Below, in pieces: positions 57,380 through 62,345 of a stretch of DNA of 64,000 nt. The notes beneath the pieces were generated by a model. It saw nothing but the letters and a program-made list of their open reading frames with translations. It did not search any database and was not told the origin of the DNA. The number at the start of each line of letters is the position of its first letter. Positions within the stretch are counted from its first letter, which is position 1. This stretch comes from Natrinema hispanicum (lineage in GTDB: Archaea; Halobacteriota; Halobacteria; Halobacteriales; Natrialbaceae), in assembly GCF_900111485.1 (NCBI RefSeq), contig NZ_FOIC01000008.1:62001-126000 (forward strand), written 5' to 3'. The translations under genes were made by a program, and so were the position numbers.

Positions 57380-57417
57380 CCAAACAGTTTTGGTTGTGCC
57401 CGGACCAACGAAACGCT

Positions 57418-58827
57418 ATGCTCGAGGGGGTTCGAGAGCGGCTGTGGGCGCTCGCGAGACGACTGCGACGCCTCGAGCGGCGCGAACTCGACGCTTTCTT
57501 GCGCTGGATCGAGCGGACGGGCAATCTCTTGCATCTCTCGGTGTTGCTGTTCGTCCCGCTGTTGATCGCGGTGGTGACGTGGCTGGCGAACGCAACCGCG
57601 GCGGTCTCGTTCCTCCTGTTTCCGCCGCTGGCGTCGGGGACGTACACGCTCTTTGCCGATCCCGAGGGAACGTACGCCACGCCGTCGACGTTCGTCGGGG
57701 GGATGACCGTCGGCGCGCTCTGTGGCTGGGTCGCGCTCGCGCTGGCGACGACGGTCGGACTCGGGGGTGGCCGTGTCAGTGCAACTGGTGCGGCACTCGG
57801 CGTGTTCTTCACCGGCGTCTGTACGTGGGCGCTCGACCTCGAGGAGCCGGCGGCGTTCTCGACGGCACTGCTCGTACTCTTGACCGGCAACGCGCAGTTG
57901 GCGTACGTCATCGGGATCATCATCTCAAGTGCGTTCGTCGCGGTCGCGTTCGTCGTCTGGCGGCGTCACTTCTACCAACAGCGCGCCCGCTATCTCTATG
58001 GGACGACGAGCGGTGACGATCACGTGCTCGTCCCGATGGCCGACGCCGACGAGACTGTCGCCCGGTTCGCCGCGTCGATCGCCACCGCCCACGACGCTGG
58101 CAGGGTCGTGCTCTTCGACGTCATCGACGAACAGCACGATGACATCGATGCCGACAGTGACGACGAGTCCCCCTCCATCGAACGGGCAGCCGACGACGCG
58201 GCCCGTCATCTCGAGTCACTGGCGGCCGATCTCGAGACCGCCTACGGCGTCTCCTGTGACGCCGTTGTCGCGGCCGCACGCGACCAGTCTGCGAGTCTCG
58301 TCCTCAGAACCGCCCGCCAGCAGAACTGTGATCTCGTCGTCGCGCCGTATGCCGAACACGAGAACGGCGGGCTCTCGTCGTTTCTCAAAGGATTGTTCGA
58401 CAGCGAGATCGACGTCATCGCGTTCCGGTCGAACGGTATCCGGCGGCGACACTGGCGAAGCAGCTTGGTCGCGGTTCGGGGTGCCGGCGACACCGCTCGC
58501 GCGATGGTCGACTTCGCGATCCGTATCACCGAACCCGGACGCCCCGTCACCGTCAGTACCTGTATCGACGACGAATCGCGTCGTCGACCGGCCGAAAACA
58601 CGCTCGCCGATCTCGTCGATGCGTTCTCGGGCCGATTCGAAACACACGTCGTGACCGCGCCGGTCGAGACCTATCTCTCCCGTGTCGCACCCCGGTACGA
58701 CGTGTGCTTCGTCGGCTCGAGTACCGACCGATCGGCCGCCTCGCGGTTCGTCTCGCCGCCGACGTTTCGCAAACTCAGCGACCTCGAGGCCGACGTGGCG
58801 ATCGTTCATCGTGGACGGCACCGCTGA
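57418..58827 (+). CDS. HPP-type membrane domain fused to UspA-like domains
   Basis: A 469-residue protein. After a charged amphipathic start, residues about 38-185 form four to five membrane helices of the HPP family (FLLFPPLASGTYTLFADPEG, GGMTVGALCGWVALALATTV), followed by residues about 195-469 with one or two USP-like domains (HVLVPMADADETVARFAASI, and SLVAVRGAGDTARAMVDFAI). A membrane transporter controlled by a stress sensor is suggested. Start at 57418 (MLEGVRERLW), 38 nt after deoC on the same strand. Confidence 0.82.
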   Translation: MLEGVRERLWALARRLRRLERRELDAFLRWIERTGNLLHLSVLLFVPLLIAVVTWLANATAAVSFLLFPPLASGTYTLFADPEGTYATPSTFVGGMTVGALCGWVALALATTVGLGGGRVSATGAALGVFFTGVCTWALDLEEPAAFSTALLVLLTGNAQLAYVIGIIISSAFVAVAFVVWRRHFYQQRARYLYGTTSGDDHVLVPMADADETVARFAASIATAHDAGRVVLFDVIDEQHDDIDADSDDESPSIERAADDAARHLESLAADLETAYGVSCDAVVAAARDQSASLVLRTARQQNCDLVVAPYAEHENGGLSSFLKGLFDSEIDVIAFRSNGIRRRHWRSSLVAVRGAGDTARAMVDFAIRITEPGRPVTVSTCIDDESRRRPAENTLADLVDAFSGRFETHVVTAPVETYLSRVAPRYDVCFVGSSTDRSAASRFVSPPTFRKLSDLEADVAIVHRGRHR

Positions 58828-58868
58828 TGGTTCCGGTTGTTTCTGTATGATTATCAGTTATTGTTGTG

Positions 58869-58888
58869 ACCCCTCGTACCGAGTGAGT
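58869..58888 (+). repeat. ORB-like repeat, copy 1
   Basis: ACCCCTCGTACCGAGTGAGT, taken as the reference copy. Plus orientation, 5' side of the AT-rich core. Confidence 0.7.
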
Positions 58889-58917
58889 CAGTGTCGTGAT
58901 ACTCCTTCGCCGGACAC

Positions 58918-58937
58918 CCCCCTCGTACCGAGTGAGG
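58918..58937 (+). repeat. ORB-like repeat, copy 2
   Basis: CCCCCTCGTACCGAGTGAGG, two end mismatches to copy 1, same orientation, 49 nt downstream. Confidence 0.7.
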
Positions 58938-59174
58938 TCTTCGCAAATAGAGCCGTGTCTTTCTGTGGAACGCCCGCCACAGTCTTTCAAAGAAGTTTCG
59001 CACCCATTCAGAGATCATTCAGAGATGGGAGTTTAATATATATGATTATATCTTACTATATTATTGTTAGTTATCCCGGTACAGTAGAGTACAGTAGCCG
59101 TTTTTTGAATACGGCCTATCGATCTACGGAGTATTTATATAGGCTGTATGAGTTAGCTACCAAGTGGATTCGCA

Positions 59175-59194
59175 ACTCACTCGGTATGAGGGGT
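59175..59194 (-). repeat. ORB-like repeat, copy 3 (inverted)
   Basis: On the minus strand ACCCCTCATACCGAGTGAGT, one mismatch to copy 1, on the far side of the AT-rich core. Confidence 0.7.
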
Positions 59195-59293
59195 GGGGCT
59201 GTTCTCGACTCTCCTTATTAATGACTAGTGGATGCCGTTAACAGGGTCCCTTGCGCTCGAATTTTGAGTCTCAGTCAGCGGCTGGTTCGGTGC

Positions 59294-59301
59294 GTTTAAT
59301 T
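59294..59301 (+). promoter_or_regulatory. TATA box of orc1/cdc6
   Basis: GTTTAATT is centred about 26 nt before the ATG at 59324, implying a leaderless transcript. Confidence 0.55.
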
Positions 59302-59323
59302 TCCTAGAACGTAATCTCGGTCC

Positions 59324-60529
59324 ATGGCAGAGGACGGGGAACTGACTGATATATTTGATACTGGTGATATCTTCGCAAATCGAGAGCTGGTTCGAGTCGG
59401 TCACGTTCCTGAACTTGACCGCGTTGTGGGCCGTGACGAGGAAATCCGATCGGTTGGGAGTGCGCTTGCTGCTGCAACCGAAGGTGGGCCGCCAGAAACG
59501 ACGATTATCTACGGGAAAACAGGGACCGGGAAATCGCTCGTCTCGAGATGTGTCACGCGTCAAGCGTCCAGACGAGCCGCTACCAATGGAGCCGCGCTCA
59601 AATACGCATACGTGGATTGTTCAGATTATCAGACAGAAACGCAAGCAAGCCGTGAATTAGCCCGGGAATTGAACGAACATCTCGAAGCAGGGGAGTCTAT
59701 CCCGCAAACTGGATTGAGTGCCGTGGATTATCGTGACATCACGTGGGACCTGCTTTCTGATTACGATGTCGACTCACTTGTTGTCATCCTCGACGAAATC
59801 GATAAGCTCGAGAACGAAGATCTGCTTCGGAGCCTCTCGAGAGCTCGTGAGAGTGGGAAATCAAACACGTTCATCGGCGTTATCTGTATCAGTAATAAGA
59901 TCGAATACCGAGAACGGTTGAACGAGCGCGTGGATTCGAGTTTGCAGGACAACGAGCTCGTGTTCGATCCATACGGCGCAAAACAATTACGCGCGATCCT
60001 TGAAAACCGGAAAGACGCGTTCAAACCTGGTGTCTTATCGGACGAAGTCATTCCGAAGACGGCAGCGCTTGCAGCTCGAGAACATGGTGATGCACGCAAA
60101 GCTGTCGAGACGTTCTACGAAGCAGGCCGTCTTGCAGAGAAGAACGGAGACGGGCAGGTAACTGAAGCGCACGTTGATGAAGCGATTACCCAAGCAGAGG
60201 TCAACCGATTCCATCGCCTCGTGAGTGGCCAGACACCACATGTAAAGTACATCTTACGAGCGCTTGCTGCACTGACTGCTTCAGAGGAGAAAAAACAGTT
60301 CCGGACAGCGGAAATATACGATCTCTATACGACGATCGCGACCCAGGAGGGATCGGACCCGTTGTCACACGATCGAGTTAGACGGCTCCTCAAAGAACAA
60401 GCGTTCCTGGGGATTACTGAAAGCGAGCATACTGGTGGTGGTGATCGAGAGGGGAGTTATCTCGTTCATCGGCTGATGCGTGATCCGGATATCGTGTTCA
60501 ATGCCCTCAACGCTGATCACGGTCCCTGA
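59324..60529 (+). CDS. Orc1/Cdc6-family replication initiator
   Basis: A 401-residue AAA+ initiator. Walker A is IIYGKTGTGKSLV (about 65-77), Walker B VVILDEIDKL (about 152-161), sensor 1 IGVICISNKIEYRERL with the initiator-specific region nearby, sensor 2 REHGDARKAVETF, and the C-terminal 110 residues form a winged helix (ALTASEEKKQFRTAEIYDLY). It binds ORBs and loads MCM. Codon use is less GC-rich than its neighbours, and with its private origin it may be a secondary or acquired replicon module. Start at 59324 follows a TATA box. Confidence 0.93.
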   Translation: MAEDGELTDIFDTGDIFANRELVRVGHVPELDRVVGRDEEIRSVGSALAAATEGGPPETTIIYGKTGTGKSLVSRCVTRQASRRAATNGAALKYAYVDCSDYQTETQASRELARELNEHLEAGESIPQTGLSAVDYRDITWDLLSDYDVDSLVVILDEIDKLENEDLLRSLSRARESGKSNTFIGVICISNKIEYRERLNERVDSSLQDNELVFDPYGAKQLRAILENRKDAFKPGVLSDEVIPKTAALAAREHGDARKAVETFYEAGRLAEKNGDGQVTEAHVDEAITQAEVNRFHRLVSGQTPHVKYILRALAALTASEEKKQFRTAEIYDLYTTIATQEGSDPLSHDRVRRLLKEQAFLGITESEHTGGGDREGSYLVHRLMRDPDIVFNALNADHGP

Positions 60530-60628
60530 TATCCTCTGAAGTGCGAGTGGTCCTTTGCTGGCGCGACAGTCACAACTGTCGTCTCAGACGGACTCCTGGC
60601 GGTCAGTGCCGACCGGCCGCGCCGGTTC

Positions 60629-60674
60629 TGTGGCCCACCGGGATATCCTGCGCCCGTCTTGTGGCCCACCGGGA
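60629..60674. repeat. Direct repeat pair downstream of orc1/cdc6
   Basis: TGTGGCCCACCGGGA occurs at 60629-60643 and 60660-60674, a 31-nt period. Purpose unknown; close to the fourth ORB-like copy. Confidence 0.65.
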
Positions 60675-60700
60675 CAGCGGGACAACAGCCCGTCTCACTC

Positions 60701-60720
60701 ACTCACTCGGTGCGAGGGGT
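60701..60720 (-). repeat. ORB-like repeat, copy 4 (downstream of the gene)
   Basis: On the minus strand ACCCCTCGCACCGAGTGAGT, one mismatch to copy 1, about 170 nt past the orc1/cdc6 stop codon, so the repeats bracket the gene. Confidence 0.65.
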
Positions 60721-61071
60721 GGCTGGCTCGCTCTCCCAGTGACGAGGATGATAGAGATGGATTTCACAAGTACTGTTCATGGGTTGGTTCTATGCGATCT
60801 CACAGCGAACCAGAAGATACGTCGGTGTGTGAACTTCCCGCTGCGGATAATGAGTAGCAGCCGCTCGCTTCGCGAGCGATTCACCGGCGGAGTGGGGTGA
60901 AACCCCGCGACGCCGGCTTTTTGGCATCGACGGGTTTTGCCGGGGGTTGAGGCGAGCGTCTTCGACGCTCGTCGATGCCTCCCGGTAACAGAGGGTGCTG
61001 TACTGATCGAATCAGGTGTTCATAACGACGTTCTGGGAACGGTCCTCTGAACCACTCTCCGTCGTCTGTGA

Positions 61072-62253
61072 TCACCTCTCGAGGATCCGGTCGATCAGGC
61101 CGCTTTCGTCGCTTCCGAGTGCCGACCGAACGAGCAGGTGGCCGCCCAGTTGTGCAGGACTGATCACCGCATCCGCGCCGGCGCGCTCGAGTTTCTTGAC
61201 GTTCTCGCGGTCCGTCGCCGCGGCGACGATTCGCATCTCCGGGGCGAGTTGGCGAGCGGTGAGGACGGTCAGTGCGTCCTCGGCGTCGTGATTCGTGGCG
61301 ACGAGGGTCGCGGCTGCACGATCGATTTTCGCGCGTCGAAGCGGGTCCTCGTCACTCGGATCGCCGCTGACGACCGGCATGTCTCGGTTCCTGAGTGCCG
61401 TTGCGGCCTCTTGGTCGTTAGTGACGACGACGAACTCACGGCCGGTGTCTGCGAGTTCGTCGACGATCGGTTCCGTCAGTTCGCCGTAGCCGAGCACGAG
61501 GAGGTGCTCGTCTAAGAGTTGGAGCTGTGAGTCGGTCATCTTTCCGAGTGTTCTCGAGATACGATCTTGGATCAGCGGGCCGACGAGCGCCCCGATGGCG
61601 ATACCGAAGCTCGCGACGCCGAGGATGAGCACGGACATGGTAAACAGCATCGCCTGTACCGACCCCGTGTTCGGTGTCACGTCGCCATAGCCGACCGTGC
61701 TCGAGGTGATCAATGTGAAGTAGAAGGCATCGAGGATGTTGCTGATCCCGTCGAAGTGCTCCCGGAGGGTGTATCCGCCAATGGTCCCGTACACTTGGAC
61801 TCCGACCAGTGCAGCACCGGCCGCGAGCTGGGTCGTCGACAGCGAGAGCGACTTGTCGAATCGCTCGCGGGTGAGCAGCAGAAACGGGATCGACACGATC
61901 GAGCAGACGACCAGCGGGAACGAGTACGGACTCGACTGGAGGAGTCCCTGTGCTGCGGTCAGCGGAAGCAACAGCAGCGTCGCCCACCAGCCCGCTCGGA
62001 GCCCGCGTCGAAGTGACAGCGCGCTGCCGACCATTAGAAAGCCGGTGAGCGCGCCGGTAAAGGCCGCAGCGTTTCGGACGGCGTCGGGAACGTATTCCTC
62101 GAGCGGGCCGCCGACGGCGTTGGTCCCGATGTTGACGACGGCAGTCGCGACCGAGAGTAACGCGACGAGCAAGACGAGTACCACGGCTGTCCGCGTCGTG
62201 AGAACGCGCCGCCAGTTCTCCGGCAGGCGCGTTCGCAACGACCGGCCGTCGAC
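61072..62253 (-). CDS. TrkA-N potassium channel (Kch-like)
   Basis: A 393-residue channel. After five hydrophobic segments the pore helix carries the potassium filter TVGYGD at about 187-192 (FYFTLITSSTVGYGDVTP), followed by TMSVLILGVASFGIAIGALV. From about 252 a Rossmann RCK/TrkA-N domain begins (LLVLGYGELTEPIVDELADTG), with RAGADAVISPAQLGGHLL near the end. It gates potassium by nucleotide binding. Start at the ATG at 62253 (MVDGRSLRTRL); an ATG three codons earlier is also possible. Confidence 0.92.
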   Translation of the reverse strand, partial: VDGRSLRTRLPENWRRVLTTRTAVVLVLLVALLSVATAVVNIGTNAVGGPLEEYVPDAVRNAAAFTGALTGFLMVGSALSLRRGLRAGWWATLLLLPLTAAQGLLQSSPYSFPLVVCSIVSIPFLLLTRERFDKSLSLSTTQLAAGAALVGVQVYGTIGGYTLREHFDGISNILDAFYFTLITSSTVGYGDVTPNTGSVQAMLFTMSVLILGVASFGIAIGALVGPLIQDRISRTLGKMTDSQLQLLDEHLLVLGYGELTEPIVDELADTGREFVVVTNDQEAATALRNRDMPVVSGDPSDEDPLRRAKIDRAAATLVATNHDAEDALTVLTARQLAPEMRIVAAATDRENVKKLERAGADAVISPAQLGGHLLVRSALGSDESGLIDRILER

Positions 62254-62345
62254 CATACACACCGCTCGGCGGTGGTGCTAGTTAAACGTCTCCGTCTTGG
62301 CCGAACCGACCGGCCTCGGACCACCGGAGACGCACTCGCGTGCGA

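What the first reader, a model, noticed from the sequence alone, without database searches (positions are those of the whole stretch)
58828..59323. Candidate origin: inverted ORB-like repeats around an AT-rich core, next to orc1/cdc6
Two direct and one inverted copy of ACCCCTCGTACCGAGTGAGT enclose the AT-rich region, with 18-19 of 20 positions kept. The layout equals archaeal origins. The repeat differs from ORB sequences I remember, so it may define its own specificity class with this Orc1.
Basis: partly seen in the sequence, partly recalled or inferred. Interest (0 to 1): 0.66.

Follow-up and report, generated by a model that had tools for sequence, protein, structure and literature searches.

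The report
Acquired haloarchaeal replication-origin cassette with initiator gene
This is a compact DNA-replication start site packaged with its own initiator gene, slotted exactly between two neighbouring genes of a salt-loving archaeon; it belongs to a known kind of origin, although its relatives hide an unexpected extra initiator-binding site inside the initiator gene itself.

Summary
These four are the only copies within 3 mismatches in the 3.96-Mb genome. The three upstream copies, with G-strings pointing outward, flank the most AT-rich stretch of the window. The adjacent gene (59324-60529) encodes an Orc1/Cdc6 with AAA+, lid and winged-helix domains. This meets the published structural criteria for a haloarchaeal orc/cdc6-adjacent origin.

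It is not a new specificity class. The box (TCACTCGGTRYGAGG[G/T]GTG) accompanies one Orc clade across many haloarchaeal genera, including plasmid pHTUR04, whose three orc genes were all scored as origin-associated in 2012. The cassette is an insertion: in most genomes of the genus the flanking genes are direct neighbours, and homology breaks at 58825 and resumes at 61075. In Haloterrigena sp. H1 an IS element interrupts the AT-rich core, so activity may be dispensable. GC skew gave no support for firing; activity is untested.

A side finding may be new: in about 20 relatives a near-perfect box lies inside orc, in the Walker-A codons, with the strongest synonymous conservation of the gene. In this window it is degenerate.

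The parts
58826..61074 (.). whole inserted cassette: origin, orc gene and downstream box, between two convergent genes
   Evidence: BLASTN of the window against empty-site relatives stops at about 58817-58825 and resumes at 61075-61079; gaps of 9-41 bp in many same-genus genomes against 2250 bp here
58869..58888 (-). ORB 1 (ACTCACTCGGTACGAGGGGT read on the - strand), G-string outward
58918..58937 (-). ORB 2 (2 mismatches), G-string outward
58938..59174 (.). AT-rich core, putative duplex-unwinding element (GC 40%; 33% in the 150 bp from 59006)
   Evidence: lowest-GC 60/100/150-bp windows of the 64 kb start at 59006-59014
59175..59194 (+). ORB 3 (1 mismatch), inverted relative to ORBs 1 and 2
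59295..59302 (+). TTTAATTT, possible TATA box 22-29 bp before the orc start codon (inference from sequence only)
   Evidence: read directly
59324..60529 (+). orc1/cdc6-family initiator gene, 401 aa, AAA+ / lid / winged helix
   Evidence: TIGR02928 E 1.3e-110; Cdc6_lid, Cdc6_C, AAA_16; homologous to 2v1u and 2qby chains
59534..59553 (+). Walker-A codons where relatives carry an intragenic ORB; degenerate here (5 of 20 mismatches, not significant)
60701..60720 (+).
57394..58827 (+). left flanking gene (HPP transmembrane region plus Usp domain), not part of the cassette
   Evidence: conserved neighbour at empty sites
61072..62262 (-). right flanking gene (ion channel plus TrkA_N), not part of the cassette
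   Evidence: conserved neighbour at empty sites

Best explanation
The locus is an orc/cdc6-adjacent replication origin of the usual haloarchaeal kind, acquired as a compact replicator-initiator cassette of about 2.25 kb. The adjacent Orc binds the three upstream ORBs in opposite orientations, its winged helix on the TCACTCGGTACGAG part and its AAA+ domain on the G-string. This opens the AT-rich core between ORB 2 and ORB 3 and loads MCM for bidirectional replication. The downstream ORB 4 probably binds the same Orc and modestly restrains initiation or orc expression. Shown here: the anatomy, the rarity of the boxes, the co-occurrence of box class and Orc clade, and the precise insertion. Inferred: binding, unwinding, firing and the role of ORB 4. 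Whether it fires in wild-type cells or is a dormant origin is open; I put roughly even odds on measurable firing.
For: Boxes far beyond chance and only here in the genome. AT-rich core between inverted boxes. Outward G-strings match the order of the C-run and G-run given for H. hispanica oriC1 in PMC3936714. Intact Orc with AAA+, lid and winged helix. Box class next to homologous Orcs in about 45 loci with a recurrent layout, and absent beside the outgroup Orcs. The other Orc genes of the same genome mostly have their own different boxes. A 50%-identical Orc paralogue (L006) has the nearest box, TTTCACTCTGAACGAGGGGTG. The family occurs on plasmid pHTUR04 with the same boxes. Precise empty sites.
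Against: No sharp GC-skew inflection within 150-200 kb in two near relatives. In Haloterrigena sp. H1 (97% identical Orc) an IS element sits inside the AT-rich core, so the origin can be lost. The genome has about a dozen other orc/ORB pairs, so many of them may be silent. Published predicted origins include inactive or dormant ones (PMC3528665, PMC4595724). Seven ORB-like 18-mers lie away from any Orc of this clade in three other genomes.
Confidence: 0.82

Rival explanations
1. Dormant or decaying origin (a sub-case that overlaps the best explanation): the cassette is origin-shaped and its Orc can bind, but it does not fire in wild-type cells because established origins dominate. It persists as an acquired, dispensable element, like oriC4-cdc6H of Haloferax mediterranei.
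For: Patchy presence within the genus and precise empty sites; no skew signal; IS in the core in a sister species; published precedent that recently acquired origins are dormant (PMC4595724).
Against: The window's boxes, core and gene are intact; three near relatives keep the same four-box layout.
Confidence: 0.45
2. Operator rather than origin: the Orc acts as a transcription factor on the boxes (autoregulation or regulation of neighbours), as the non-initiator Orc1-2 does in Sulfolobales, and no replication starts here.
For: In many relatives a box lies 55-90 bp before the start codon; Orc paralogues with regulatory roles exist (PMC9738581, listed).
Against: Inverted boxes around the most AT-rich stretch, downstream boxes and plasmid-borne copies fit a replicator better; the promoter-proximal box of relatives is absent in this window.
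Confidence: 0.1
3. Relic of an integrated plasmid replicon that now serves only as a plasmid incompatibility or partition determinant.
For: Homologous Orc and boxes on pHTUR04; orc GC 52% against 64-66% in its neighbours.
Against: Only origin, orc and one box are inserted; no other plasmid gene or integrase was recognised between 58826 and 61074.
Confidence: 0.08
4. Chance repeats.
For: None.
Against: Expected 0.01 matches, 4 found; conserved in relatives.
Confidence: 0.005

Closest known systems
Haloarchaeal orc/cdc6-adjacent replication origins (Wu et al. 2012, PMC3528665)
   Same: Inverted ORB-like repeats with a halophile G-string in the intergenic region next to an orc/cdc6 gene, AT-rich core between them, one box class per Orc clade, frequent transfer between species.
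   Different: Compact insertion with exact gene-end boundaries; only four boxes.
Origin on Haloterrigena turkmenica plasmid pHTUR04 (HTUR_RS24735 locus)
   Same: Orc 73% identical; same box core TCACTCGGTACGAGG in inverted arrangement.
   Different: Nine boxes (four left, three right, two downstream), G-string GAGGTGTG rather than GAGGGGTG; plasmid rather than chromosome.
Haloarcula hispanica oriC2-cdc6E with the downstream ORB-rich oriC2D (PMC3936714)
   Same: ORBs both upstream and downstream of the initiator gene; the downstream boxes are reported to restrain initiation.
   Different: One downstream box here against 11 in 722 bp there; the Haloarcula relatives found here (L033, L037) are not the cdc6E locus by that criterion.
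Haloferax mediterranei dormant origin oriC4-cdc6H (PMC4595724)
   Same: Patchily distributed, acquired orc/ORB cassette in a genome with several other origins.
   Different: Sequence relationship not tested; activity of the present locus unknown.

Membership tests
Haloarchaeal orc/cdc6-adjacent origin (criteria of PMC3528665) | ORB-like repeats with a G-string in the intergenic region directly adjacent to orc/cdc6 | tested here: met
Haloarchaeal orc/cdc6-adjacent origin (criteria of PMC3528665) | at least two inverted ORBs flanking an AT-rich element | tested here: met
   ORBs 1-2 against ORB 3
Haloarchaeal orc/cdc6-adjacent origin (criteria of PMC3528665) | initiator over 300 aa with AAA+ and winged-helix domains | tested here: met
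   401 aa
Haloarchaeal orc/cdc6-adjacent origin (criteria of PMC3528665) | box sequence shared by members of the same Orc clade and different for other Orcs | tested here: met
   exceptions L125 and L126 (57-64% identity)
Haloarchaeal orc/cdc6-adjacent origin (criteria of PMC3528665) | autonomous replication activity | not testable with these tools
   needs a plasmid assay
Haloarchaeal orc/cdc6-adjacent origin (criteria of PMC3528665) | replication peak at the locus (marker frequency) | not testable with these tools
   no read data; GC-skew proxy inconclusive
oriC1 family | conserved in all haloarchaea | tested here: not met
   homologue at E<=1e-150 in 23 of 293 genomes of the order, and in only 2 of the 16 same-genus genomes listed
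oriC2-cdc6E with downstream titration cluster | cluster of many ORBs downstream of the initiator gene | tested here: not met
   one downstream box
oriCa / oriCb families of PMC3528665 | Orc at least 80% identical to named members | not tested
   named chromosomal members could not be fetched; supplementary alignments are not held

The most novel reading that the evidence does not exclude
In the sister lineages of this Orc the initiator gene is itself part of the replicator: a selected ORB lies inside the coding sequence, exactly over the Walker-A codons (TCACTCGTTRCGAGGTGTGT = S-L-V-T/A-R-C-V), where Orc can bind its own gene and act as a roadblock, titration site or further origin box, much as lambda's origin lies within the O gene (the lambda comparison is from general knowledge). 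DNA-level selection there would also steer the protein residue after SLV (Thr/Ala where the box is kept, mostly Ser where it is lost, as in this window).
Probability: 0.55. Interest if true: 0.55.

Novelty: new member of a known kind. Interest (0 to 1): 0.36.

Why it matters
It adds a clean case of an origin and its initiator moving as one small cassette, with the empty site, the filled site and an IS-broken site all visible in close relatives, which makes the 'acquired origin: active or dormant?' question testable in one genus. The intragenic box in sister lineages, if bound, would show that searches limited to intergenic regions have missed part of archaeal origins and would suggest direct feedback of an archaeal initiator on its own gene.

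Tried and rejected
GC skew around the origin in 400-kb stretches of two near relatives: no sharp inflection; the right-side G excess at 50-100 kb coincides with an rRNA operon about 78 kb away, so inconclusive. Identification with Haloarcula cdc6E: rejected, because the Haloarcula homologues lack the 11 downstream boxes. A new box class unique to this Orc: rejected. Phage origin: no phage record encodes a relative. Similar Walker-A boxes in the other Orc families of this genome were looked for and not found. Literature searches for an intragenic ORB gave nothing, but the library is open-access only.

Full report
OBSERVATION. Shuffles of the window expect 0.01 matches; the whole 3.96-Mb genome has only these four. 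Read with the G-string at the 3' end, the box is ACTCACTCGGTACGAGGGGT. Boxes 1 and 2 lie on the - strand, boxes 3 and 4 on the + strand, so the G-strings of the upstream boxes face away from the AT-rich core, the same order as the C-run (site I) and G-run (site II) given for H. hispanica oriC1 (PMC3936714). The core between box 2 and box 3 (237 bp) contains the most AT-rich 60-, 100- and 150-bp windows of the entire 64 kb.

THE INITIATOR. The gene at 59324-60529 is a full orc1/cdc6-family protein (TIGR02928, E 1.3e-110; Cdc6_lid and Cdc6_C), homologous to the solved archaeal Orc1/Cdc6 chains 2v1u and 2qby. The genome encodes about 15 further Orc homologues, the closest only 50% identical. A de novo search of their flanks shows that most have their own, different G-string boxes, while L015, L018 and L020 have no convincing ones. 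A 50%-identical paralogue, L006, has the closest box, TTTCACTCTGAACGAGGGGTG. One Orc, one box class is therefore the pattern of this genome.

RELATIVES. Named relatives (60-99% identity) come from Natrinema, Haloterrigena, Natronolimnohabitans, Halosimplex, Halomicroarcula, Halobellus, Halocatena, Halorubrum, Haloferax, Haloarcula, Haloquadratum, Halapricum and Halobacterium, with further unnamed ones. Nearly all carry boxes with the core TCACTCG[G/T]TRYGAGG. The recurrent layout is left boxes on the - strand 200-600 bp upstream, right boxes on the + strand at about -150 and -60, and a box soon after the stop codon. On the tree the box class is confined to this clade; the outgroup Orcs L007-L009 lack it, and so do two divergent members, L125 and L126. 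The window's subclade ends its box in GAGGGG, like some but not all relatives; many others have GAGGTGTG. The family also sits on plasmid pHTUR04 with nine such boxes; Wu et al. 2012 list pHTUR04 as having three orc genes, all origin-associated (PMC3528665). The class is therefore not new, though which named family of that paper it belongs to could not be settled.

INSERTION. In 21 same-genus genomes the left (HPP/Usp) and right (ion channel/TrkA_N) neighbours are present. In many of them they are convergent and 9-41 bp apart; in a few the gap is 320-430 bp and holds an unrelated element. Here the gap is 2250 bp. BLASTN of the window against empty-site relatives stops at 58817-58825 and resumes at 61075-61079, that is, at the ends of the two flanking genes. 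The orc gene is 52% GC against 64-66% in its neighbours. In Haloterrigena sp. H1, whose Orc is 97% identical, an IS element with terminal repeats (GTGTTCAGATAAG) and a 211-aa transposase-like ORF is inserted in the AT-rich core (the transposase call is mine from the sequence, not from a family search). The cassette was thus acquired, and in at least one lineage its core is broken.

IS IT ACTIVE? Not shown. Cumulative GC skew in 400-kb stretches of two near relatives has no sharp turn at the locus. An rRNA operon about 78 kb downstream is transcribed away from the locus in both, which resembles known active origins (PMC4441112) but proves nothing. Published experience is mixed: five of seven predicted H. 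hispanica origins had ARS activity (PMC3528665), and an acquired H. mediterranei origin is dormant until others are deleted (PMC4595724). I therefore separate 'origin cassette' (0.82) from 'fires in wild type' (about even).

ELSEWHERE. The 18-mer CTCACTCGGTRYGAGGGG occurs in 10 of 392 genomes of the order with no control hits. Nineteen of 26 places are beside an Orc gene of this clade, two of them (G040) beside a fragment. Seven are not: four in G071, two in G389 and one in G344. G071 and G389 have no Orc of this clade; some of their boxes lie near serine-recombinase (resolvase) genes, and in G071 about 2-7 kb from a divergent Orc. These are unexplained.

SIDE FINDING. In many relatives a box lies inside the gene, over the codons following the Walker-A lysine: TCACTCGTTACGAGGTGTGT or TCACTCGTTGCGAGGTGTGT, 1-2 mismatches from the clade's box, against 7-9 expected from the gene's own codon usage. 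The per-gene p is at the floor of 0.0005 for about 15 genes; the genes are related, so the tests are not independent. Between two divergent subclades this stretch holds the most conserved synonymous codons of the gene (0.77-0.81 same codon given same residue, mean 0.44, sd 0.10). A pattern search found it in 18 genomes inside an orc gene of this clade; only one of 25 matches had no such orc beside it. It is absent at the same position in the genome's other Orc families and degenerate in this window (5 mismatches, p 0.09). Wu et al. searched only intergenic regions, so it would have been missed. Binding is untested; shared codons by descent or an RNA-level constraint remain possible.

VERDICT. 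A well-formed, laterally acquired member of a known kind of origin, of modest interest in itself; the intragenic box of its relatives is the part that could surprise a specialist.

Noticed in passing
L028:3196-3215, L033:3211-3230, L035:3187-3206 and about 20 other relatives; degenerate at window 59534-59553: A near-perfect ORB lies inside the orc gene over the Walker-A codons, with the highest synonymous conservation of the gene.
   Followed up: yes
L024:2104-2739 (Haloterrigena sp. H1): IS element with terminal inverted repeats inserted in the AT-rich core of the orthologous origin, splitting left from right ORBs.
   Followed up: partly
L068, L070, L071, L072, L073, L074 (gap between the two flanking genes): At the same junction other species of the genus carry a 320-430 bp conserved element without an obvious gene (CTGCTATCGTGGCAACAGGGAATCGCCACGCCCTCCCCAGCCGATTC...), so this junction receives different inserts.
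   Followed up: no
L181:7509, L182:6922-11772, L183:5394-16794 (genomes G071 and G389): Exact or near-exact ORB 18-mers in genomes without an Orc of this clade, some of them near resolvase genes; two loci share a 1.2-kb, 90% identical segment.
   Followed up: partly
L006-L020 (own genome): About 15 further Orc homologues, around a dozen with their own distinct G-string boxes; three (L015, L018, L020) without convincing boxes.
   Followed up: partly
G295:C1:497492 and G293:C1:1138273: In both near relatives with long contigs an rRNA operon lies about 78 kb downstream of the cassette and is transcribed away from it.
   Followed up: no
window 60619-60643 and 60650-60674: Two 25-nt direct repeats (GTGGCCCACCGGGA core) between the orc gene and ORB 4, of unknown role.
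   Followed up: no
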